Shown one piece after another: positions 1 through 16,169 of a DNA stretch of 64,000 nucleotides. Under the pieces are notes generated by a model, which saw nothing but the letters and a program-made list of their open reading frames with translations, did not search any database and was not told the DNA's origin. The stretch lies in the NCBI GenBank assembly GCA_037893245.1, contig JBAIAA010000244.1, positions 186,001 through 250,000 of the forward strand. Direction: 5' to 3'. Made by a program: the position numbers and the translations under genes. How positions within the stretch are numbered: the stretch's first letter is position 1; every line of letters starts with the position of its first letter. This DNA is from Crossaster papposus. Lineage: Eukaryota; Echinodermata; Asteroidea; Velatida; Solasteridae.

Positions 1-369
1 CCGTAGCACTACACACACACAACTGGTGTTATGTAAGCGCCACGGGTAAATGAACAACAAAGGAAAACCCGTACACTGTACGGGAAGAACAAAGAAATAC
101 GTACAAACCTATGGGCCCGTGGACTTCCACGGGGAGAACAAAGGCTGTACGTAAACGAATGGCGCTGGCTGCTACAGCACTGCGTATACAGCCAGCGACC
201 AAAAACCAAAACTAAAAACCTCCAAAACAACAACCAAAAATACTAAGAAATTTGGCAAAAATAAGACCAACCTGGCCTATAAACAAAAAGGAACAAACTG
301 GTATAAAAATTATATCAGTTTAGTAGGACAAAACTTGACTACGCCTCAAGATCACGGGAGCAAAAAAAA
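1..369 (+). mobile_element. Unclassified sequence with A8 end abutting U2 nt 36; possible 3' end of an antisense retroelement
   Basis: The plus strand is A-rich and ends in GAGCAAAAAAAA directly against CTACAC, the complement of U2 nt 31-36. A poly(A)-like run touching the same U2 nucleotide that is cut in the other U2 copy (13156) suggests the 3' end of a poly(A)-tailed non-LTR element inserted opposite to U2. No domain can be read, because only an untranslated tail would lie in the window; a 74-codon minus-strand open stretch at 9-233 resembles nothing I know. Three strong hairpins lie at 68-197. The assignment is inference. The segment could also be unrelated DNA joined by rearrangement. 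Confidence 0.4.
68..197 (+). other. Three consecutive perfect hairpins
   Basis: Hairpin 1 (68-84) is CCCGTAC-ACT-GTACGGG. Hairpin 2 (116-133) is CCCGTGG-ACTT-CCACGGG. Hairpin 3 (163-197) has a 9-bp stem, CGCTGGCTG with CAGCCAGCG, around a 17-nt loop. Hairpins 1 and 2 share the CCCGT stem base and are each followed by (A/G)AGAACAAAG, so they look like a duplicated structural motif. Because the stems differ in sequence but both pair perfectly, a structured RNA is more likely than chance. This would suit the 3' untranslated region of a retroelement; no family is recognised. Confidence 0.6.
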
Positions 370-405
370 CTACACATGATCTTAGCCAAAAGGCCGAGAA
401 GCGAT
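370..405 (-). ncRNA. U2: U2 snRNA gene fragment, nt 1-36 only
   Basis: On the minus strand this is the canonical U2 5' end: ATCGCTTCTCGG, then CCTTTTGGCTAAGATCATG, then TGTAG. It covers the U6-pairing stretch and stem I, and stops after the GUAG of the branch-site recognition sequence GUAGUA. Downstream (below 370) the strand continues with a T8 run and unrelated sequence, so the branch-pairing residues, stem-loops II-IV and the Sm site are missing. The fragment cannot give a working U2 RNA. The upstream region is the same as that of the second copy at 13156-13191. Confidence 0.9.
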
Positions 406-1986: not shown

Positions 1987-2530
<544 letters not shown>

Positions 2531-2897: not shown

Positions 2898-3380
<483 letters not shown>

Positions 3381-3838
3381 GAAATAACGACACGAGAGGA
3401 GAAATAAACAGTCAACGAGAGAGAGAGAGAGAAAAGCAAGCAAACGAATTATCGCAACATTAAAATACAAACATACAAACTGAACTGTTAAAAGCACTGT
3501 TATTTATTGTATTTGAGGTTTTATCACTTACACAAAAAAAAGCTATAAAAAAGGGCCCTGCATTATTACCTATAGTCGCAGAGGATTTGTTTGTTTGTTT
3601 GTTTGTTTGTTTGTTTGTTTGTTTGTTTTTGTTGTTGTTGTTTTTCCTTTTCTTCAGAAATCAACCAAAAACAAAGAGATCGGTCTTCATACAATTATTT
3701 AATTGAGACAAATTGAAATGTTCAAATATAAGAAAGCCACGAAGTAAAGCGAAGAAAGAACTTGTAAAAGTGAGGCGACATAGGAATACACATAATAGAC
3801 GAGACCTGTTTTTGTATTAATTGATGTTCCCCGAGGAG
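3381..3838. other. U2 3' flanking spacer (block A)
   Basis: This is the sequence downstream of the U2 3' end on the minus strand. It holds no gene. It contains a (GA)n run at about 3418-3432, a long (GTTT)n tract at about 3588-3627 and (GTT)n after it. A CAAAAACAGG at about 3807-3816 (minus strand), some 25 nt past the U2 end, could be the snRNA 3' box; that is a guess from position. The equivalent stretches are 5692-6157 and 7691-8156. Confidence 0.6.
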
Positions 3839-3839
3839 A

Positions 3840-3990
3840 GTGGGCCGAATCCCAGATGTACTGCTATACCGGGCCAACCCATGGCCGGGACGAGGCAAGC
3901 CTCTATTCCACGGCCCAAATCCAAAAATCAGATTAATATACTGGCTGTTCGATGAACAGCGTTTCAGATATTAAGCTGAAAAGAACAGAG
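3840..3990 (-). ncRNA. U2: U2 snRNA 3' half (about nt 38-188), block A
   Basis: On the minus strand, from CTCTGTTCTT onward, the sequence follows U2 domain by domain. IIa is TTCAG/CTGAA around CTTAATAT. IIb is GCTGTTC-ATC-GAACAGC. The Sm site is ATTTTTGG at about 3921-3929. Stem-loop III is GGCCG...GAGG-CTTG-CCTC...CGGCC. Stem-loop IV is CCCGGTATAGCAGTACATC then TGGG, inside an outer stem TGGGTTG/CGGCCCA. Against vertebrate U2 many stem bases differ but pairing is kept, and the stem IV region resembles insect U2 as I recall it. It lacks U2 nt 1-36, so this copy is only the 3' half behind a retrotransposon fragment. Confidence 0.9.
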
Positions 3991-4318
3991 TTTTTTATTA
4001 AAATATTTCACTTCGAAATACAAAGAGTAAACATGGTTTTAAAAACTAATACAATCATAAACCTCCGTCCCAGAGGTGATTAAGATAGATAAGGAAACCT
4101 TAAGTAATAACAAAAACTGGGCGAATTTAAACCCAGTATAAGAATTAAGTAGAAAACACTTAGAACTAAATACATAAACTGCAACCGGCCTTGTCCCGCG
4201 ATGTCTGTTCTTCTGTAAAATAGACGCTGGGTACCTGCAGTGGGAGAATAAGAAAAATAAAAACATGGGTTAAATAACAGAGTATAACTTGTTGACATGA
4301 AGTCAATGTTGGTTGGAC

Positions 4319-4993
4319 CTACTCATCAGAGTACTGACGGTGGCCGGTGACATGTTCAATGTAGATGTCCCGTGATCCCTTGATGGCATCTATGCAACAT
4401 AGACGGCGCATCAACCCTCTGTAGCCCTTGGAGATACCAAGACGGCCAAGTGCTCTCTTGTTTCCAGGTAACCAGGAACCGAGAGACCCGACTGCGAAGC
4501 CGAACACTTGGACGTCTTTGCCTTCTGCAGCCAAAGCCTGCCGTAAGCCATCACATTTGGTGACTTTGGCTGCAGCGGCGATCTCCAAGGCATCACGGCC
4601 GTTGTCGAAAGGGCAACAAACGCGAATGATTGTTACTTTGTTGCCCTCGACAACTGTGATGTCGGGTCGCTGACGGGGGGTGGGATCACCCGGGACATGC
4701 TGGTCAATAAACACCTGCCCATGCCGCACAGCTGCCTTGATCCGATTCTGAACAAGATTATGTCGTCTTCGGATAGGCACCATGTTTGGCGGGCAGTTGT
4801 TCAGGATGTGGGGCAGAGTCTCGTCCCTCACTCCACAGCGGCGGCACTTTGGATCCGTCGCTGGATTCCATCGTTTAGCCGCTGCGTTGGTCGGGAGACA
4901 GTTCAGGCGGGCCCTGTGGATAAACTGCCAGTCACAGAATCGGATGAAACTGCCGGTGTTCATCCACGAGGAGCCGTTACGGAAGGGGTCCAA
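4319..4993 (-). pseudogene. Endonuclease region of truncated element, block A
   Basis: The 224-codon stretch carries the CCHC knuckle (C50, C53, H62, C67) and the PD of a restriction-like endonuclease, as described for block C (8636-9370). It is separated by the same in-frame TAA from the RT-side stretch 5054-5691. It differs from blocks B and C at only two residues (K for E and G for R near position 170-180). As part of a 5'-truncated element it has no promoter or start of its own. Confidence 0.85.
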
Positions 4994-5053
4994 CTCCAGT
5001 GAACGGGCAACCTTACCCTGGTCCGGGAGAGCGAGTAATTTACCAGAGTAAAA

Positions 5054-5691
5054 TTATCGAGCGGCAGCACGCAGAGCAGTTGTAATGCCCTTGGCCTGTA
5101 TTTCTCTCCCCTTGTCCGTGCGTGTGACTACTGAGCCGGAACAGCAGCCACTGAGAGAAATACGAAGCCGGCGTGCAGCCGCCCTCGCCCGGGACCAGAG
5201 GGTAGGGATCTGCCCGCTCGTTCCGTAGTTGGCCAGGTCCCCCTCCATAGATCCGCTCATGAACTGATCGAGCTCTGCCTCCGTTGGCTCACGGTGCAAC
5301 GTACGGTGGACAACAGAAGTCAGTTGCTTGGTGGCAACACCGCGAACGGTGTCGTCTGATGAAGATAGGATACGAACAGCTTGCGTGACAGTTTGAATGT
5401 CAGCATCCCGGTTGGGATCCATCAGACCCAGACCACCCACTTTTCTGTCCGCAAAGACATAATTGGTAGTGGCCCGGGTCGGAAGGTTGCAAACTTTCCG
5501 TACCAACTTCACCACCTCTCCCCTTAGTCCCTTCAGACTACGCTTCTGGCAATCACCGGCGCGCAATACGTACGAGGCACATGGTTCGATAAATGTACGT
5601 ATTGCGTCCAGTTTTTGCCAGGGGGCAAGGAGAGAGGCTTCCACCTTGCGCAGGTCTTCTGTCATCTTGACCACCAATGCTTCGAGACTCT
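5054..5691 (-). pseudogene. RT thumb/linker fragment, block A
   Basis: 212 codons correspond to the C-terminal third of the RT frame of block C (from SLEALVVKMTEDLRKVEA to ITTALRAAAR). No RT catalytic motif is included, since the cut lies after the YADD region. It ends at the same TAA as the other copies. Upstream it is joined to U2 3' flanking DNA of block B, which happens to keep the frame open for a few codons; this is accidental. Confidence 0.85.
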
Positions 5692-6157
5692 GAAATAACG
5701 ACACGAGAGGAGAAATAAACAGTCAACGAGAGAGAGAGAGAGGAAAGCAAGCAAACGAATTATCGCAACATTAAAATACAAACATACAAACTGAACTGTT
5801 AAAAGCACTGTTATTTATTGTATTTGAGGTTTTATCATTACACAAAAAAAAGCTATAAAAAAGGGCCCTGCATTATTACCTATAGTCGCAGAGGATCTGT
5901 TTGTTTGTTTGTTTGTTGGGGTGTTTGTTTGTTTGTTTGTTTGTTTTTGTTGTTGTTGTTTTTCCTTTTCTTCAGAAATCAACCAAAAACAAAGAGATCG
6001 GTCTTCATACAATTATTTAATTGAGACAAATTGAAATGTTCAAATATAAGAAAGCCACGAAGTAAAGCGAAGAAAGAACTTGTAAAAGTGAGGCGACATA
6101 GGAATACACATAATAGACGAGACCTGTTTTTGTATTAATTGATGTTCCCCGAGGAGA

Positions 6158-6308
6158 GTGGGCCGAATCCCAGATGTACTGCTATACCGGGCCAACCCAT
6201 GGCCGGGACGAGGCAAGCCTCTATTCCACGGCCCAAATCCAAAAATCAGATTAATATACTGGCTGTTCGATGAACAGCGTTTCAGATATTAAGCTGAAAA
6301 GAACAGAG
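6158..6308 (-). ncRNA. U2: U2 snRNA 3' half, block B
   Basis: Identical in layout and almost in sequence to the copy at 3840-3990, with domains IIa, IIb, Sm site, III and IV. It is preceded on the minus strand by the element tail AATAAAAAA and lacks U2 nt 1-36. Confidence 0.9.
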
Positions 6309-6636
6309 TTTTTTATTAAAATATTTCACTTCGAAATACAAAGAGTAAACATGGTTTTAAAAACTAATACAATCATAAACCTCCGTCCCAGAGGTGATTA
6401 AGATAGATAAGGAAACCTTAAGTAATAACAAAAACTGGGCGAATTTAAACCCAGTATAAGAATTAAGTAGAAAACACTTAGAACTAAATACATAAACTGC
6501 AACCGGCGTTGTCCCGCGATGTCTGTTCTTCTGTAAAATAGACGCTGGGTACCTGCAGTGGGAGAATAAGAAAAATAAAAACATGGGTTAAATAACATAG
6601 TATAACTTGTTGACATGAAGTCAATGTTGGTTGGAC

Positions 6637-7311
6637 CTACTCATCAGAGTACTGACGGTGGCCGGTGACATGTTCAATGTAGATGTCCCGTGATCCCTTG
6701 ATGGCATCTATGCAACATAGACGGCGCATCAACCCTCTGTAGCGCTTGGAGATACCAAGACGGCCAAGTGCTCTCTCGTTTCCAGGTAACCAGGAACCGA
6801 GAGACCCGACTGCGAAGCCGAACACTTGGACGTCTTTGCCTTCTGCAGCCAAAGCCTGCCGTAAGCCATCACATTTGGTGACTTTGGCTGCAGCGGCGAT
6901 CTCCAAGGCATCACGGCCGTTGTCGAAAGGGCAACAAACGCGAATGATTGTTACTTTGTTGCCCTCGACAACTGTGATGTCGGGTCGCTGACGGGGGGTG
7001 GGATCACCCGGGACATGCTGGTCAATAAACACCTGCCCATGCCGCACAGCTGCCTTGATCCGATTCTGAACAAGATTATGTCGTCTTCGGATAGGCACCA
7101 TGTTTGGCGGGCAGTTGTTCAGGATGTGGGGCAGAGTCTCGTCCCTCACTCCACAGCGGCGGCACTTGGGATCCGTCGCTGGATTCCATCGTTTAGCCGC
7201 TGCGTTGGTCGGGAGACAGTTCAGGCGGGCCCTGTGGATAAACTGCCAGTCACAGAATCGGATGAAACTGCCGGTGTTCATCCACGAGGAGCCGTTACGG
7301 AAGGGGTCCAA
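6637..7311 (-). pseudogene. Endonuclease region of truncated element, block B
   Basis: A 224-codon stretch identical at the protein level to the block C endonuclease region, with the CCHC knuckle and PD but Arg at the expected second acidic position. The in-frame TAA upstream (7372-7374) is shared with A and C. It is not independently expressible. Confidence 0.85.
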
Positions 7312-7371
7312 CTCCAGTGAACGGGCAACCTTACCCTGGTCCGGGAGAGCGAGTAATTTACCGGAGTAAAA

Positions 7372-7690
7372 TTATCGAGCGGCAGCACGCAGAGCAGTTG
7401 TAAAGCCCTTGGCCTGTATTTCTCTCCCCTTGTCCGTGCGTGTGACTACTGAGCCGGAACAGCAGCCACTGAGAGAAATACGAAGCCGGCGTGCAGCCGC
7501 CCTCGCCCGGGACCAGAGGGTAGAGATCTGCCCGCTCGTTCCGTAGTTGGCCAGGTCCCCCTCCATAGATCCGCTCATGAACTGATCGAGCTCTGCCTCC
7601 GTTGGCTCACGGTGCAACGTACGGTGGACAACAGAAGTCAGTTGCTTGGTGGCAACACCGCGATCTTGACCACCAATGCTTCGAGACTCT
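7372..7690 (-). pseudogene. RT-side fragment with internal deletion, block B
   Basis: About 97 codons match the block C RT frame before its TAA (RGVATKQLTSVVHRTLHREP and on). Upstream of them a deletion joins the last codons of the 5'-truncated fragment. No catalytic motif is left. Confidence 0.8.
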
Positions 7691-8156
7691 GAAATAACGA
7701 CACGAGAGGAGAAATAAACAGTCAACGAGAGAGAGAGAGAGGAAAGCAAGCAAACGAATTATCGCAACATTAAAATACAAACATACAAACTGAACTGTTA
7801 AAAGCACTGTTATTTATTGTATTTGAGGTTTTATCATTACACAAAAAAAAGCTATAAAAAAGGGCCCTGCATTATTACCTATAGTCGCAGAGGATCTGTT
7901 TGTTTGTTTATTTGTTGGGGTGTTTGTTTGTTTGTTTGTTTGTTTTTGTTGTTGTTGTTTTTCCTTTTCTTCAGAAATCAACCAAAAACAAAGAGATCGG
8001 TCTTCATACAATTATTTAATTGAGACAAATTGAAATGTTCAAATATAAGAAAGCCACGAAGTAAAGCGAAGAAAGAACTTGTAAAAGTGAGGCGACATAG
8101 GAATACACATAATAGACGAGACCTGTTTTTGTATTAATTGATGTTCCCCGAGGAGA

Positions 8157-8307
8157 GTGGGCCGAATCCCAGATGTACTGCTATACCGGGCCAACCCATG
8201 GCCGAGACGAGGCAAGCCTCTATTCCACGGCCCAAATCCAAAAATCAGATTAATATACTGGCTGTTCGATGAACAGCGTTTCAGATATTAAGCTGAAAAG
8301 AACAGAG
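8157..8307 (-). ncRNA. U2: U2 snRNA 3' half, block C (partner of 13156-13191)
   Basis: This is the 3' part, about nt 38-188, of the U2 gene whose nt 1-36 lie at 13156-13191 on the other side of the inserted element. Stem-loops IIa, IIb, III and IV and the Sm site are all present, and stems are kept paired relative to vertebrate U2. U2 nt 37-38 (UA of GUAGUA) are not seen: the minus strand goes from the element's A6 to CTCTGTT. The gene is split by 4.85 kb and cannot make normal U2. Confidence 0.92.
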
Positions 8308-8635
8308 TTTTTTATTAAAATATTTCACTTCGAAATACAAAGAGTAAACATGGTTTTAAAAACTAATACAATCATAAACCTCCGTCCCAGAGGTGATTAA
8401 GATAGATAAGGAAACCTTAAGTAATAACAAAAACTGGGCGAATTTAAACCCAGTATAAGAATTAAGTAGAAAACACTTAGAACTAAATACATAAACTGCA
8501 ACCGGCGTTGTCCCGCGATGTCTGTTCTTCTGTAAAATAGACGCTGGGTACCTGCAGTGGGAGAATAAGAAAAATAAAAACATGGGTTAAATAACATAGT
8601 ATAACTTGTTGACATGAAGTCAATGTTGGTTGGAC

Positions 8636-9370
8636 CTACTCATCAGAGTACTGACGGTGGCCGGTGACATGTTCAATGTAGATGTCCCGTGATCCCTTGA
8701 TGGCATCTATGCAACATAGACGGCGCATCAACCCTCTGTAGCGCTTGGAGATACCAAGACGGCCAAGTGCTCTCTCGTTTCCAGGTAACCAGGAACCGAG
8801 AGACCCGACTGCGAAGCCGAACACTTGGACGTCTTTGCCTTCTGCAGCCAAAGCCTGCCGTAAGCCATCACATTTGGTGACTTTGGCTGCAGCGGCGATC
8901 TCCAAGGCATCACGGCCGTTGTCGAAAGGGCAACAAACGCGAATGATTGTTACTTTGTTGCCCTCGACAACTGTGATGTCGGGTCGCTGACGGGGGGTGG
9001 GATCACCCGGGACATGCTGGTCAATAAACACCTGCCCATGCCGCACAGCTGCCTTGATCCGATTCTGAACAAGATTATGTCGTCTTCGGATAGGCACCAT
9101 GTTTGGCGGGCAGTTGTTCAGGATGTGGGGCAGAGTCTCGTCCCTCACTCCACAGCGGCGGCACTTGGGATCCGTCGCTGGATTCCATCGTTTAGCCGCT
9201 GCGTTGGTCGGGAGACAGTTCAGGCGGGCCCTGTGGATAAACTGCCAGTCACAGAATCGGATGAAACTGCCGGTGTTCATCCACGAGGAGCCGTTACGGA
9301 AGGGGTCCAACTCCAGTGAACGGGCAACCTTACCCTGGTCCGGGAGAGCGAGTAATTTACCGGAGTAAAA
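8636..9370 (-). CDS. Restriction-like endonuclease region of the U2-inserted element
   Basis: This stretch is in the same frame as the RT and is separated from it by a single TAA (9371-9373). Counting from 9310, the CCHC knuckle of R2-type proteins is C50-x2-C53-x8-H62-x4-C67. The nuclease core has P110-D111 followed after 12 residues by R124 in IIRVCCPFD. R2-type nucleases have PD-x(12-14)-D, so the second catalytic acid appears replaced by Arg, in all three copies. In the family this domain nicks the target and primes reverse transcription on it. It ends at TAG (8636-8638) in front of the 3' untranslated region. It would be made only by stop read-through or from a copy without the stop. Confidence 0.8.
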   Translation of the reverse strand, partial: FYSGKLLALPDQGKVARSLELDPFRNGSSWMNTGSFIRFCDWQFIHRARLNCLPTNAAAKRWNPATDPKCRRCGVRDETLPHILNNCPPNMVPIRRRHNLVQNRIKAAVRHGQVFIDQHVPGDPTPRQRPDITVVEGNKVTIIRVCCPFDNGRDALEIAAAAKVTKCDGLRQALAAEGKDVQVFGFAVGSLGSWLPGNERALGRLGISKRYRGLMRRLCCIDAIKGSRDIYIEHVTGHRQYSDE

Positions 9371-11422
9371 TTATCGAGCGGCAGCACGCAGAGCAGTTGT
9401 AAAGCCCTTGGCCTGTATTTCTCTCCCCTTGTCCGTGCGTGTGACTACTGAGCCGGAACAGCAGCCACTGAGAGAAATACGAAGCCGGCGTGCAGCCGCC
9501 CTCGCCCGGGACCAGAGGGTAGAGATCTGCCCGCTCGTTCCGTAGTTGGCCAGGTCCCCCTCCATAGATCCGCTCATGAACTGATCGAGCTCTGCCTCCG
9601 TTGGCTCACGGTGCAACGTACGGTGGACAACAGAAGTCAGTTGCTTGGTGGCAACACCGCGAACGGTGTCGTCTGGTGAAGATAGGATACGAACAGCTTG
9701 CGTGACAGTTTGAATGTCAGCATCCCGGTTGGGATCCATCAGACCCAGACCACCCACTTTTCTGTCCGCAAAGACATAATTGGTAGTGGCCCGGGTCGGA
9801 AGGTTGCAAACTTTCCGTACCAACTTCACCACCTCTCCCCTTAGTCCCTTCAGACTACGCTTCTGGCAATCACCGGCGCGCAATACGTACGAGGCACATG
9901 GTTCGATAAATGTACGTATTGCGTCCAGTTTTTGCCAGGGGGCAAGGAGAGAGGCTTCCACCTTGCGCAGGTCTTCTGTCATCTTGACCACCAATGCTTC
10001 GAGACTCTCGCCACTTCTGTACAACCCGATAGGGACGCCGAGGTAGCGGTAATGTTCCTCCTCAGTCAACGCTGGTATATCGCCGCCCTGAACTTTGTAG
10101 ACTGAGGGAACAACCCGCTGACCCCTTCGACACTCCAGTGACAGGGTGGCACACTTCGTTGGTTTGAAGGTGAGCCGAAGCTTGGTGGCCATCGTGCTAG
10201 CCGTGTCCAAAAGCCGCTGCAGGCCCTCAGCCGAATTGCTTAGTACCACGAGGTCGTCAGCATAGGCAAGGACCGAGATGTCGTGTCCGTGCACCTTCGG
10301 AGCGCATCGGCCGGTTCGAGCTGCCAGAGACACGGCCCTCACCACAAGCTCAAGAGTCAAGTTGAAAAGAATCAGGGAGATCGGACAACCTTGCTTGACT
10401 CCTGAGCAGATGGATACGGGCTCTGTCCTCCCTGAAGGCGTCATAAACTCTGTGCTGGCCCCAGTATAGACATCCCGGATGATGTCTATAAATCCCACCG
10501 GCGCACCAACCGAGGCCAACACAGAGAATATAGCATTGTGGGGAATGCTGCCGAAAGCATTCTGGAGATCGAGAAACGCACAGTACAGATTTTTCTGATT
10601 TCGGCGAGCATCCCCCACAACGGACGACATCAGGAAGGTGTGCTCAAAGCAACCCTCACCAGGCCTAGCACTCTTCTGAGCGTCACTGATGAGACCACCG
10701 TCCAACGCCCAACGAGTCAGGCGGTCATACAGGATCGCCATCAGTAACTTGTACAGACACGACTGCAGGGCAATTGGTCGGAAGTTGGCCGGACATGCTG
10801 AGTCCCCTTTCTTGTAAATCAGTACCGTCGTAGCTGATTTCCAAGAGCTGGGGACACGCCCATCACGCAGACACCGGTTGAATATCGCCACGGAAACTCT
10901 AAAAGCACCGTCCGCACATCTGATGTGGCGATATTCTAGCCGGTCTTTCCCAGGTGCGGAGTTTGACATCCGACCTAGGCGGAGAGAGATCTCCTTCTGC
11001 GTAATGGGGCGCAACAAATCCGGGCCAGACTCCCGGGCGCGGTCCGTGTTCGGGAACAGGAGTCCCAAGTCAACAGTAACACTATCTTGATCGACCGCCC
11101 TTTCCGAGTGAACTTCAGTAAAGTAGTCCACTAGTGTTTCCTCGGTGCCAGTGTATCTGACCTCAGAGCCGTCCAGGACCACACGCATTCCGACCCACCG
11201 CACCACCATTCTGACCCACCGCACCACCATTCTGACCCACCGCATCACCATTCTGTCGCACCGCACCACCATTCTGTCGCACCGCACCACCATTCTGTCG
11301 CACCGCACCACCATTCTGTCGCACCGCACCACCATTTTGTTGCGCTGGTCGGGGACCCGCCGCACGCCGGTTATTCGCGGAGCCATAAGCCATGTCAACC
11401 GCATGCTGGGCAAAACGGTCAC
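9371..11422 (-). CDS. Reverse transcriptase region of the U2-inserted element
   Basis: The 683-codon open frame carries the RT motifs in order: FRPIALQ at about 224-230, AFLDLQNAF at 292-300 (motif A), GCPISLILFNL at 355-365 (motif B) and YADDLVVL at 397-404 (catalytic motif C), followed by the thumb and linker. In the family it copies the element RNA at the nicked U2 gene. The frame opens at a GTG overlapping the stop of the zinc-finger frame by four bases (GTGA). The first plausible ATGs are a few codons later, but residues 28-77 are only a heptad repeat (MVVRCDR and variants) made by a 21-bp minisatellite, read here in a different frame from the similar repeats upstream. The true protein probably began in the finger region as one polyprotein. 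It ends at a TAA that cuts off the endonuclease. Confidence 0.85.
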   Translation of the reverse strand: MTVLPSMRLTWLMAPRITGVRRVPDQRNKMVVRCDRMVVRCDRMVVRCDRMVVRCDRMVMRWVRMVVRWVRMVVRWVGMRVVLDGSEVRYTGTEETLVDYFTEVHSERAVDQDSVTVDLGLLFPNTDRARESGPDLLRPITQKEISLRLGRMSNSAPGKDRLEYRHIRCADGAFRVSVAIFNRCLRDGRVPSSWKSATTVLIYKKGDSACPANFRPIALQSCLYKLLMAILYDRLTRWALDGGLISDAQKSARPGEGCFEHTFLMSSVVGDARRNQKNLYCAFLDLQNAFGSIPHNAIFSVLASVGAPVGFIDIIRDVYTGASTEFMTPSGRTEPVSICSGVKQGCPISLILFNLTLELVVRAVSLAARTGRCAPKVHGHDISVLAYADDLVVLSNSAEGLQRLLDTASTMATKLRLTFKPTKCATLSLECRRGQRVVPSVYKVQGGDIPALTEEEHYRYLGVPIGLYRSGESLEALVVKMTEDLRKVEASLLAPWQKLDAIRTFIEPCASYVLRAGDCQKRSLKGLRGEVVKLVRKVCNLPTRATTNYVFADRKVGGLGLMDPNRDADIQTVTQAVRILSSPDDTVRGVATKQLTSVVHRTLHREPTEAELDQFMSGSMEGDLANYGTSGQISTLWSRARAAARRLRISLSGCCSGSVVTRTDKGREIQAKGFTTALRAAAR
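11191..11340 (-). repeat. 21-bp minisatellite at the start of the RT frame
   Basis: About seven copies of a 21-bp unit (plus strand CACCACCATTCTGTCGCACCG, given here in two parts: CACCACCATTCTG and TCGCACCG) lie in tandem. Since 21 is a multiple of three, all frames stay open through it. It reads as MVVRCDR repeats in the RT frame and as QNGGAVR repeats in another. Two related tracts at 11859-11985 and 12290-12455 are read as QNGGAVR/RTNGGAA in the finger frame. Confidence 0.85.
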
Positions 11423-12981
11423 ACAGACTCAAACTCCGCAAAGTCACCGGCGCGTGACAACGCCACCAGCCAGGGATTCTCCTCCTCCACGGGCTCTGGG
11501 GCCCGCGGTCTCGGTGAACCCTGGCTAGGCAGCGTGGGTTCCCTCGGGACGTCGGCCCGGCCTGCTCCCTCATCTGTGACATTAATCGGGCGCCGCACTT
11601 CAGTCACAGAATTTTGGTCACATCCCCGGCGCATACCCTCATCTGTGTTACGGGAACCCCGAGGGGTCCCCGAGCATGCATCCACAGAGTGTTGGAGCGC
11701 CAGGACACCTCCCTCATCCACGTTACGGGGACCCCGAGGAGTCCCCGAGCATTCATCCGTGGAGTGTTGGGAAATGGCCAGGTTTCGGTCCCGGTCCCAG
11801 CTAGGAGATCCCTCATCCCTGCTCCGAGGAGCCAAGGAGTATTGGGCCGAATTCGTAGTCGCACCACCATTCTGTCGCACCGCACTACCATTTGTTCGAG
11901 CCGCACCACCATTCGTTCGAGTCGCACCACAATTTTTTCGAGCCGCACAGCAATTTGTTCGAGCCGCACCATCATTTTGTTGTGCCGTGGGGTCCTCAAC
12001 CCGGCCTGCTTCCTCATCTGTGACATTATTCGAGCGCCGCACTTCAGTCACAGAATTTTGGTCACATCCCCGGCGCATACCCTCATCCGTGTTACGATAA
12101 CCCCGAGGGGTCCCCGAGCATGCATCCACGGAGTGTTGGAGCGCCAGGACACCTCCCTCATCCACGTTACGGGAACCCCGAAGGGTCCCCGAGCATTCAT
12201 CCGTGGAGTGTTGGGAAGTGGCCAAGTCGCAGTCCCCACTGGGCTGTCCCTCATCCCTGCTCCGAAGAGACAAGGAGTGTTGGGTCGAGGTCACCGTCGC
12301 ACTTCTATTTTTCCGAGCCGCACTATCATTTATTCGATTCGCACCAAATATTTGTCGGGCCGCACCAACATTTTTCCGAGTCGCACCAACATTTTTCCGA
12401 GCCGCACCAACATTTGTTCGAGTCGCACCACCATCGTTTCGAGCCGCACCTCCAGTTTGATGCAGTGCCTCGTCCATGCTTCGAGAGATGGAGTCTTGGG
12501 CAGGAGTCGCAATCGGTTCCCCGACCAAGCCCCGGATAAGGTCCATGGGAGACATGGGAGACATCGGTAGCGCATTATCCGGGGGCGAGGAAGGCGTGAT
12601 GATACTCGAGGCATCACGCTTATGGACTTGGTAGTGGTTGGCGGCCCGCCTACCTGTGTCGAACTCCCGCGGGCACACGCTGCATCGGTAGACATAGTTG
12701 AAAGTCACAAGTGGATGGAGGCGCGACTGGTGTCGAGAGAGAGTCTGCTGGGCTTGGAAACTTTCCCGGCACACAGCGCATCTCCAGCCACGAGTGAACG
12801 GGTAGGCAAACACTTGGTCTCGCTGTCCGGAGTCATCGGAGGCCGCAGATTTAAGGTGCACCCTTGACATGTGACGCTGTAGACCAGAAGCCGTAGGTAA
12901 CGTCTGGTAATGTGTGGTAGTCATCCCGGCTCGAACCCTCATCTGTGTTACGGTTACCCCGAGGGGTTCCCGAGCATGCAT
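11419..12981 (-). CDS. C2H2 zinc-finger N-terminal region of the U2-inserted element
   Basis: The 520-codon frame starts at ATG 12979-12981. It has a degenerate finger with only the H37-x4-H42 half, then two complete C2H2 fingers, C68-x2-C71-x12-H84-x4-H89 and C100-x2-C103-x12-H116-x3-H120. In R2-clade proteins such fingers bind the target DNA. From about residue 130 on, the protein is mostly low-complexity repeat: seven-residue GGAARTN/GGAVRQN units and 20-residue units of the type QHSVDACSGTPRGSRNTDEG. The same 20-residue unit also occurs upstream at about 12930-13080 but in another frame, so the leader has shifted relative to the fingers. The frame ends at TGA (11419-11421) overlapping the RT frame. 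Confidence 0.75.
   Translation of the reverse strand: MHAREPLGVTVTQMRVRAGMTTTHYQTLPTASGLQRHMSRVHLKSAASDDSGQRDQVFAYPFTRGWRCAVCRESFQAQQTLSRHQSRLHPLVTFNYVYRCSVCPREFDTGRRAANHYQVHKRDASSIITPSSPPDNALPMSPMSPMDLIRGLVGEPIATPAQDSISRSMDEALHQTGGAARNDGGATRTNVGAARKNVGATRKNVGAARQIFGANRINDSAARKNRSATVTSTQHSLSLRSRDEGQPSGDCDLATSQHSTDECSGTLRGSRNVDEGGVLALQHSVDACSGTPRGYRNTDEGMRRGCDQNSVTEVRRSNNVTDEEAGRVEDPTAQQNDGAARTNCCAARKNCGATRTNGGAARTNGSAVRQNGGATTNSAQYSLAPRSRDEGSPSWDRDRNLAISQHSTDECSGTPRGPRNVDEGGVLALQHSVDACSGTPRGSRNTDEGMRRGCDQNSVTEVRRPINVTDEGAGRADVPREPTLPSQGSPRPRAPEPVEEENPWLVALSRAGDFAEFESV
11576..12455 (-). repeat. Internal duplication with two 21-bp repeat tracts inside the finger frame
   Basis: About 430 bp are present twice at an offset of 444 bp; for example the CAGTCACAGAATTTTGG at 11601 recurs at 12045. 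Each copy has two versions of the 60-bp unit (CCCTCATC.. to ..GAGTGTTGG) and a tract of 21-bp units (11859-11985 and 12290-12455). The 60-bp unit occurs again twice in the leader near 12940-13075. Expansion of repeats in frame is the simplest explanation. Confidence 0.82.
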
Positions 12982-13155
12982 CCACAGAGTGTTGGGTCAA
13001 AACCGGGGCAGATCCCTCATCCGTGTTACGGTTGCCCCGAAGGGCGCCCGAGCATTCATCCACGGAGTGTTGGGTGCAGTGACGACCAGGTGACATCTCT
13101 CGTCCAGCAGCAGATTCTCCGAGTACTCCATCATCCAGGTCAGGAACCACATGAT
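12982..13155 (-). other. Element leader next to U2 nt 36
   Basis: The first 174 bases of the element on the minus strand follow U2 GTGTAG directly and begin ATCATGTGGTTCC. The first eight bases repeat U2 nt 27-34 (ATCATGTG). It contains two 60-bp QHSVDxCSG-type units. An open frame runs from the U2 promoter side through U2 nt 1-36 into this leader as far as 12851, overlapping the finger frame in another phase. No internal ribosome-entry or self-cleaving structure could be recognised by eye. Confidence 0.6.
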
Positions 13156-13191
13156 CTACACATGATCTTAGCCAAAAGGCCGAGAAGCGAT
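13156..13191 (-). ncRNA. U2: U2 snRNA gene, nt 1-36, 5' of the inserted element
   Basis: Identical to 370-405 and canonical through GATCATGTGTAG. The element at 8308-13155 follows directly, and the matching 3' half of the gene lies at 8157-8307. The upstream region with the octamer is retained, so the U2 promoter could drive a transcript starting with U2 and running into the element. Confidence 0.93.
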
Positions 13192-14676: not shown

Positions 14677-15054
<378 letters not shown>

Positions 15055-15473: not shown

Positions 15474-15610
15474 AGATACATGTCGAGAACATTATCATGT
15501 CACCAGTGTCCAGAAGCATGAGTCTCACAGTTTGGGTTTTTTCCAGTGAGAAATTTGGCAATATTTTGGCTCGGATGTCGAGCTTGTGAGTGTCTCTTCA
15601 TTCTCGAACA
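15474..15610. repeat. Short (about 156-bp) monomer class at the array's left edge
   Basis: The edge monomer lacks about 61 bp and reads ATTATCATGTCACCAGTGTC and AGAAGCATGAG in place of the segment with TACACGTGTA, ATAGGCCTAT and CTGAC. The same short form occurs near 35560, 42640, 42790, 45115, 45265, 46730, 46885, 48125, 48280, 54080 and 58590. Two short monomers plus ten full ones make the 2480-bp period at 41.7-46.6 kb, which explains why that period is not a multiple of 217. Confidence 0.85.
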
Positions 15611-16169
15611 ACGTTGAGGCTCGCAGCTCAGATATATATCGAGAAAAATATCCTCATTCGCAGCCATGTTTTCTGATGTGTTTGCATGTACACGTGTAGT
15701 GCCACATAGGCATATGCCGCCAGTGTCCTGACGCATGAGTCTCTCAGTTTAGGTTTGTTCCAGTGAGAAATTTGGCAATAATTTGGCTCAGATTTCGAGC
15801 TGGTGAGTGTCTCTTCATTCTCGAACAACGTTGAGGTTCGCAGCTCAGATATATGTCGAGAACATTATCCTCATTCGCAGCCATGTTTTCTGATGTGTAT
15901 GTATGTACACGTGTAAAGGCCTATGCCGCCCTTGTCCTGACGTATGAGTCTCACAGTTTGGTTTTTTTCCAGTGAGAAATTTGGAAATATTTTGGCCCAG
16001 ATGTCGAGCTGGCGAGTGTCTCTTCATTCTCGAACAACGTTGGGCTTCGCAGCTCAGATATAAGTTCATAAAATTATCCTCATTCGCAGCCATGTTTTCT
16101 TATGTTTATGCGTGTACACGTGTATTGCCGCATAGGCCTATGCCGCCAGTGTCCTGACGCATGAGTCTC

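What the first reader, a model, noticed from the sequence alone, without database searches (positions are those of the whole stretch)
8157..13191. U2 snRNA gene split at nt 36/37 by an R2-type retrotransposon
U2 nt 1-36 (13156-13191) and the U2 3' half (8157-8307) flank a 4.85-kb element that carries zinc fingers, RT and a PD-type endonuclease. The cut falls inside GUAGUA, the strictly conserved branch-site recognition sequence, a target that can hardly drift. Known U2-specific elements of this type are called Utopia; the element here may be a new family, with an unusually repeat-rich N-terminal region.
Basis: partly seen in the sequence, partly recalled or inferred. Interest (0 to 1): 0.75.

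Follow-up and report, generated by a model that had tools for sequence, protein, structure and literature searches.

The report
Jumping gene inside spliceosomal U2 gene
In what looks like an echinoderm genome, a gene for a core splicing RNA (U2) is cut by a selfish element of a known U2-hunting kind (Utopia); this copy is dead, but every sister end that was examined also lies in a U2 gene, and the same spot hosts other parasites, some apparently without their own copying enzyme.

Summary
The window holds U2 genes in tandem units together with histone genes. One U2 gene (minus strand) is split by a 4.84-kb RLE-type LINE. The 3' junction is at U2 nt 39, not 37. The 5' junction at nt 36 is atypical: this copy lost its first 37 nt, and a 7-nt filler sits at the join. 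Genome-wide, 27 of 27 family-1 3' ends found by pattern are followed by U2 nt 39, and 17 of 17 complete 5' ends follow U2 sequence ending at nt 58, so normal insertion makes a 20-bp duplication (nt 39-58). It is a Utopia-type element by target, domains and duplication, and lies outside R2 in a small RT tree. No Utopia sequence was available, so the clade itself is untested. The window copy is dead (three frame breaks, one RLE Asp lost) and its 3' part is tandemly triplicated. New context: the same U2 site also hosts Keno-like APE LINEs and two groups that appear to be ORF1-only (X, Y), X with a hypervariable zinc-finger pair. Roughly 44-46% of about 900 U2 copies appear disrupted.

The parts
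13156..13191 (-). U2 snRNA gene nt 1-36 (5' half)
13149..13155 (-). 7-nt filler, identical to U2 nt 26-32, at the atypical 5' junction
8307..13148 (-). Utopia-type RLE LINE, family 1, 5'-truncated by 37 nt and degenerate (an intact copy is 5029 bp between duplications)
12715..12780 (-). C2H2 zinc finger 2 (finger 1 is broken by a frame shift in this copy)
12622..12684 (-). C2H2 zinc finger 3
11136..12486 (-). repeat-rich linker: copies spaced 21 nt and a direct repeat spaced 444 nt
10028..10813 (-). reverse transcriptase domain (PF00078), AYADD at 10250-10267
9110..9163 (-). CCHC zinc knuckle of RLE LINEs
   Evidence: motif spacing as in PMC5678591 (passages)
8921..8986 (-). PD-(D/E)xK endonuclease core; one conserved Asp reads Arg in this copy
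8152..8306 (-). U2 snRNA gene from nt 39 (3' half)
5692..7690 (-). tandem duplicate 2: element 3' part with an internal deletion, U2 3' half (6153-6307), unit flank
3600..5691 (-). tandem duplicate 3: element 3' part, U2 3' half (3835-3989) and flank
370..405 (-). U2 nt 1-36 of the neighbouring unit
1..369 (-). 5' end of an X element (junction after U2 nt 36), continues outside the window into L052
   Evidence: 92% to X
2161..2364 (-). histone H3 motifs of the repeat unit
3069..3188 (-). histone H4 motifs
14719..14988 (-). histone H2A motifs (in two reading-frame pieces)

Best explanation
[quoted passage not shown] Shown: every family-1 3' end found by pattern is followed by U2 nt 39; every complete 5' end found follows U2 sequence ending at nt 58; so standard copies carry a 20-bp duplication (nt 39-58) and lie in U2 orientation. 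Inferred: the RLE nicks the bottom strand between nt 38 and 39, the RT copies the element RNA from its 3' end off that primer (target-primed reverse transcription), and the top strand is cut 20 bp downstream; N-terminal fingers read U2 DNA; the mRNA is a read-through from the U2 promoter, since in the intact family-1 copy read only 20 nt separate the element's 5' end from the ATG of its ORF. The window copy is a 5'-truncated product whose 5' end was joined to U2 nt 36 through a templated filler; it later lost its frame and an RLE Asp, and its 3' part was tandemly duplicated.
For: 27 of 27 3' ends with U2 nt 39; 17 of 17 5' ends with U2 nt 46-58 displayed upstream, the full 20 nt read in six family-1 loci and two family-2 ends; family 2 (RT about 70% identical, 10 full-span rows without stops); 14 of 20 rows at 99-100% RT identity have open frames of 1522 aa or more; fam1-fam2 dN/dS 0.18; RT and RLE both align to R2 proteins of the PDB; no Myb in Pfam up to E 1; RT outside an R2 group supported 98/98; 3' site and TSD length match published Utopia.
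Against: No Utopia, NeSL or YURE sequence could be obtained, so descent from the Utopia lineage is not tested. The 27 and 17 ends are not independent insertions (three of the 27 are tandem copies in the window; some contigs look like alternative haplotypes or duplicates). The pattern allows only 2 mismatches, so older or diverged 3' ends outside U2 would be missed, and its reversed control gave 10 hits. The tree has 8 rows and long branches. Element RNA, promoter use and nicking were not observed.
Confidence: 0.9

Rival explanations
1. A separate RLE-LINE lineage (for example from R2, R4 or HERO) that came to target U2 on its own, so it works like Utopia without being one.
For: RT is only 25-31% identical to R2 and R2-like rows; no Utopia rows to compare; Keno shows that U2 was adopted more than once.
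Against: Same 3' site (nt 39), same 20-bp TSD as reptile Utopia, same domain order, no Myb found; Utopia is already reported from two sea urchins and a starfish.
Confidence: 0.08
2. The elements stay in U2 mainly because the U2 array is copied and homogenised as a whole, not because they keep inserting there.
For: The window shows tandem duplication of element plus U2 3' half; some copies look like the same insertion on two contigs.
Against: Exact 20-bp duplications, many distinct contigs, two families about 70% identical at the same site, intact frames, and two tandem family-1 copies with U2 nt 39-58 between them (C9:74959 and 80032; L027).
Confidence: 0.07
3. Chance similarity or assembly artefact.
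For: Long tandem arrays can misassemble.
Against: Rfam E about 3e-21 for each of three U2 halves; the same junctions recur on many contigs; reversed-pattern controls gave 0 hits (10 for the A/T-rich pattern).
Confidence: 0.01

Closest known systems
Utopia (Kojima and Jurka 2015, PMC4640811; parts 1-3 of 5 and passages seen)
   Same: U2-specific, 3' junction at nt 39, RLE with N-terminal C2H2 fingers, 20-bp TSD as in reptile families, tandem insertions as in Nasonia, echinoderm hosts already listed
   Different: Host has about 900 U2 matches; long repeat-rich N-terminal linker; shares its site with Keno-like and ORF1-only elements; clade membership not tested here
R2 (28S rDNA)
   Same: RLE LINE domain order; RT and RLE align to PDB R2 proteins
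   Different: Target is U2, no Myb found, RT outside the R2 group
Keno (APE-encoding, U2-specific; known here only from PMC4640811; clade Tx1 recalled)
   Same: L054 and L062 carry ORF1 with a CCHC knuckle and an APE-RT ORF2 at the same U2 site
   Different: Not the window's main element; descent from Keno not tested by sequence; flanks here are U2 nt 1-32 and nt 37 on
HAL1 (ORF1-only L1 derivatives; recalled)
   Same: The X and Y copies read in full keep ORF1 and no RT
   Different: Sit in U2 genes; X carries a variable C2H2 pair

Membership tests
Utopia | U2 gene flank beginning at nt 39 on the 3' side | tested here: met
   27 of 27 pattern hits
Utopia | PD-(D/E)xK endonuclease after a C-terminal zinc knuckle | tested here: met
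   aligned to R2 RLE; conserved Asp in 25 of the 27 loci that hold the motif, of 30 checked
Utopia | one to three N-terminal zinc fingers | tested here: met
   three C2H2 fingers in both families by sequence, C2H2 models in Pfam
Utopia | no Myb domain (criterion of PMC13188248, passages) | tested here: met
   no Myb among Pfam matches up to E 1; no R2 positive control was run
Utopia | TSD as published (none in arthropods, 20 bp in reptiles) | tested here: met
   full 20 nt in six family-1 and two family-2 5' ends; last 13 nt in 17 of 17
Utopia | RT in the NeSL/Utopia lineage | not testable with these tools
   no Utopia or NeSL protein held; a viral-contig scan found no relative
R2 | insertion in 28S rDNA | tested here: not met
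   all ends found are in U2
R2 | RT within the R2 group | tested here: not met
   8-row tree: three PDB R2 rows plus L057 supported 98/98 without families 1 and 2
Keno (for L054, L062) | APE plus RT, U2 target | tested here: met
   PF03372 and PF00078 in L054; U2 flanks of both
Keno (for L054, L062) | sequence descent from Keno | not tested
   no Keno sequence held

The most novel reading that the evidence does not exclude
The U2 array of this animal carries a guild of U2 parasites: two Utopia-type families, Keno-like autonomous LINEs, and two numerous ORF1-only groups that persist as protein-coding parasites of other elements' RT. One of them (X) keeps its RNA-binding N-terminal part under purifying selection while its C-terminal zinc-finger pair is exchanged or driven to change, as if the fingers were in a race (with host, partner or rival elements), on a target as invariant as the U2 branch-site region.
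Probability: 0.35. Interest if true: 0.75.

Novelty: new member of a known kind. Interest (0 to 1): 0.55.

Why it matters
U2 is an essential splicing RNA, and the Utopia paper stresses the puzzle of several families living on about ten or fewer intact U2 genes in Phytophthora (PMC4640811). Here the assembly holds hundreds of U2 copies and nearly half seem disrupted, which makes the population biology of U2 parasites countable. Two endonuclease types (RLE and APE) and RT-less companions with junctions within 2 nt of each other allow direct comparison of how a near-invariant target is recognised, and open-frame copies exist for biochemistry on site-specific insertion.

Tried and rejected
Independent insertions for the window's three U2 3' halves: rejected; two share one unit-element junction. 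R2 membership: rejected on target and tree. DNA transposon for X and Y: rejected for Y after L054 and L062 showed ORF1 plus APE-RT with the same 3' end as Y; for X it rests on the ORF1-like CCHC protein and the junction alone. A full-length partner of X was sought at C9:540700-547250: the extra length held repeat-like frames and parts of X, no RT frame among its ORFs of 150 aa or more; X's RT donor remains unknown. HDV-like ribozyme near 5' ends: none up to E 0.5 in 6 sources. A viral-contig scan for relatives of family 1 found none. The idea that only the DNA-contact positions of X's fingers vary: not so; most non-ligand positions vary. Species identity could not be fixed: COI reads as expected only with code 9, which with recalled COI sequences and recalled gene order points to an echinoderm, perhaps a starfish or brittle star. 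Structure prediction of X ORF1 was never run.

Full report
Setting. The window is contig C244:186001-250000 of a 1.02-Gb unnamed eukaryote. A mitochondrial COI in the same assembly uses TGA as Trp and reads as expected only with code 9 (AAA Asn, AGA Ser; the expectation is recalled); that points to an echinoderm. On contig C9 U2 genes follow each other at about 6.25 kb. In the window the U2 units also hold H2A, H3 and H4 motifs; the H2B and H1 motifs tried were not found.

Observation. Rfam finds three U2 3' halves on the minus strand. The 4.84-kb element between them lies in U2 orientation. Against an intact family-1 copy (5029 bp between duplications; ORF 1559 aa from its first Met) the window copy lacks the first 37 nt, meets U2 nt 36 through a 7-nt filler identical to U2 nt 26-32, changes frame three times and has Arg for a conserved RLE Asp. 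Of 30 loci checked, 27 hold that motif, 25 with Asp and 2 with Arg (L011, which is the window copy, and L030). The other two U2 3' halves carry the element's 3' part behind one shared unit-element junction: tandem duplication. The neighbouring U2 gene (370-405) is split after nt 36 by another element, X.

Target specificity. A pattern for the family-1 3' terminus with open flank gave 27 hits with up to 2 mismatches; all 27 continue into U2 from nt 39 (its reversed control gave 10). A pattern for the complete 5' end gave 17 hits, all preceded by U2 sequence ending at nt 58, of which 13 nt are displayed (15 without mismatch, 2 with a mismatch at the pattern's first letter; control 0). The full nt 39-58 was read at the 5' end in six family-1 loci and two family-2 ends. 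So standard insertions carry a 20-bp TSD. Family 2 has an RT about 70% identical. The published Utopia 3' junction is nt 39, and reptile families have 20-bp TSDs. These copies are not all independent: arrays are duplicated and some contigs look like alternative haplotypes.

Coding capacity. One search scored 65 of 5630 candidates. Of its 20 rows at 99-100% RT identity, 14 have open frames of at least 1522 aa; 10 further rows are family 2, none with stops. Fingers 1-3 keep 16/22, 15/22 and 17/21 residues between families, and family 1 versus 2 has dN/dS 0.18 with dS 1.9, near saturation. R2 proteins are the best PDB matches, over RT and RLE. Pfam finds C2H2 fingers and no Myb up to E 1 in the N-terminal parts (no R2 control run); a 2026 paper uses lack of Myb to tell Utopia from R2 (passages). 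In an 8-row RT tree, families 1 and 2 fall outside a supported group of three PDB R2 rows and an R2-like element of this genome (98/98; long branches, one of five inner branches passing the tool's star threshold). Utopia itself could not be put in the tree.

How much of U2 is hit. U2 sequence from nt 39 on: 904 hits; intact target: 506 hits, both with up to 2 mismatches. The 506 include 5' duplication ends (17 complete family-1 ends), so about 44-46% of copies seem disrupted; more diverged copies and uncollapsed haplotypes make this rough. On C9, among 79 exact matches listed for the 3' part, 39 had an intact 5' part by the exact matches listed (a 40th is intact); 14 of the others have extra length 2500-2570 bp and 11 have 1670-1890 bp.

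Other residents of the site. Non-intact junctions that fit a restricted pattern numbered 241; of the 100 listed, 53 are Y-type, 29 X-type, 13 family 1, 4 family 2 and 1 other (counted by hand). Y-type ends include full-length relatives, and copies not fitting the pattern's fixed letters are missed: the C9 class of 2554-2567 bp is not listed there, and I take it for X by size only. X, read in full once (2.5 kb), has one ORF of 563 aa with CCHC knuckles and a C-terminal C2H2 pair; 77 of 1039 candidates were scored, 75 without stops. Y has one ORF1 of about 446 aa; 95 of 10495 candidates gave 106 rows, none with a stop, some on contigs outside the arrays. Absence of an RT was seen directly in the one full X and in the Y copies L065, L066, L068 and L069, whose U2 start and U2 3' flank lie within about 1.8 kb, and otherwise from C9 spacing. 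L054 and L062 are full-length relatives of Y: ORF1 plus ORF2 with APE and RT (for L054; L062 ORF2 1121 aa), U2 nt 1-32 on the 5' side, nt 37 on the 3' side, and the same last 18 nt as Y. ORF2 relatives at 96-97% with frames up to 1121 aa occur in several copies. So Y is best read as an ORF1-only derivative of a Keno-like LINE; the RT donor of X is not known. Eight ORF1 sequences (seven Y or Y-like, one of them outside U2, and one full-length) give pairwise dN/dS 0.26-0.58. Six X sequences give whole-ORF dN/dS 0.23-1.05, but pN/pS 0.18-0.57 in the three blocks of the first 440 columns and 1.25 over the last 127, where pS is also about twice as high (no significance test). Among 46 X C-termini 28 were distinct; 27 were analysed (L086 dropped, short): the seven zinc ligands measured are invariant, most other finger positions are not. 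Domain exchange, relaxed constraint and positive selection are not separated by these data.

Literature. Utopia paper: parts 1-3 of 5 and passages. PMC5678591 and PMC13188248: passages. Searches with terms for Utopia, Keno, ORF1-only and U2-histone papers listed no title or abstract on ORF1-only U2 elements; other papers were seen only as listings, and most subscription journals are not in the library.

Verdict. A real, U2-specific, Utopia-type element: a new member of a known kind. The copy in the window is dead and its 36/37 split is atypical. The interest lies in the heavily infested U2 array and its apparently RT-less residents.

Noticed in passing
window 1-405 and L052: An X element splits the adjacent U2 gene after nt 36; the copy next to the window has a broken ORF.
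   Followed up: yes
L070-L114: X ORF1 carries a hypervariable C-terminal C2H2 finger pair behind a conserved body.
   Followed up: partly
L044, L066: Family-2 copies follow directly on the U2 piece behind an X (L044) or a Y (L066) element: nested use of one U2 gene by both endonuclease types.
   Followed up: partly
L063, L067: A Keno-like relative (ORF2 about 89% identical) and a Y-like ORF1 copy lie outside U2, with sequences that look like inverted ends of a DNA transposon nearby: possible target switch.
   Followed up: partly
L041, C9:428000-429000: This species' U2 has an ATG at nt 29-31; in family 1 the frame from it ends in TGATG, overlapping the element's own start codon (read by eye).
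   Followed up: no
window 15491-16000: Direct repeats spaced about 209-217 bp begin beside the array.
   Followed up: no
G000:C8: Open COX1-type frames without stops on a large contig, possibly bacterial; not examined.
   Followed up: no
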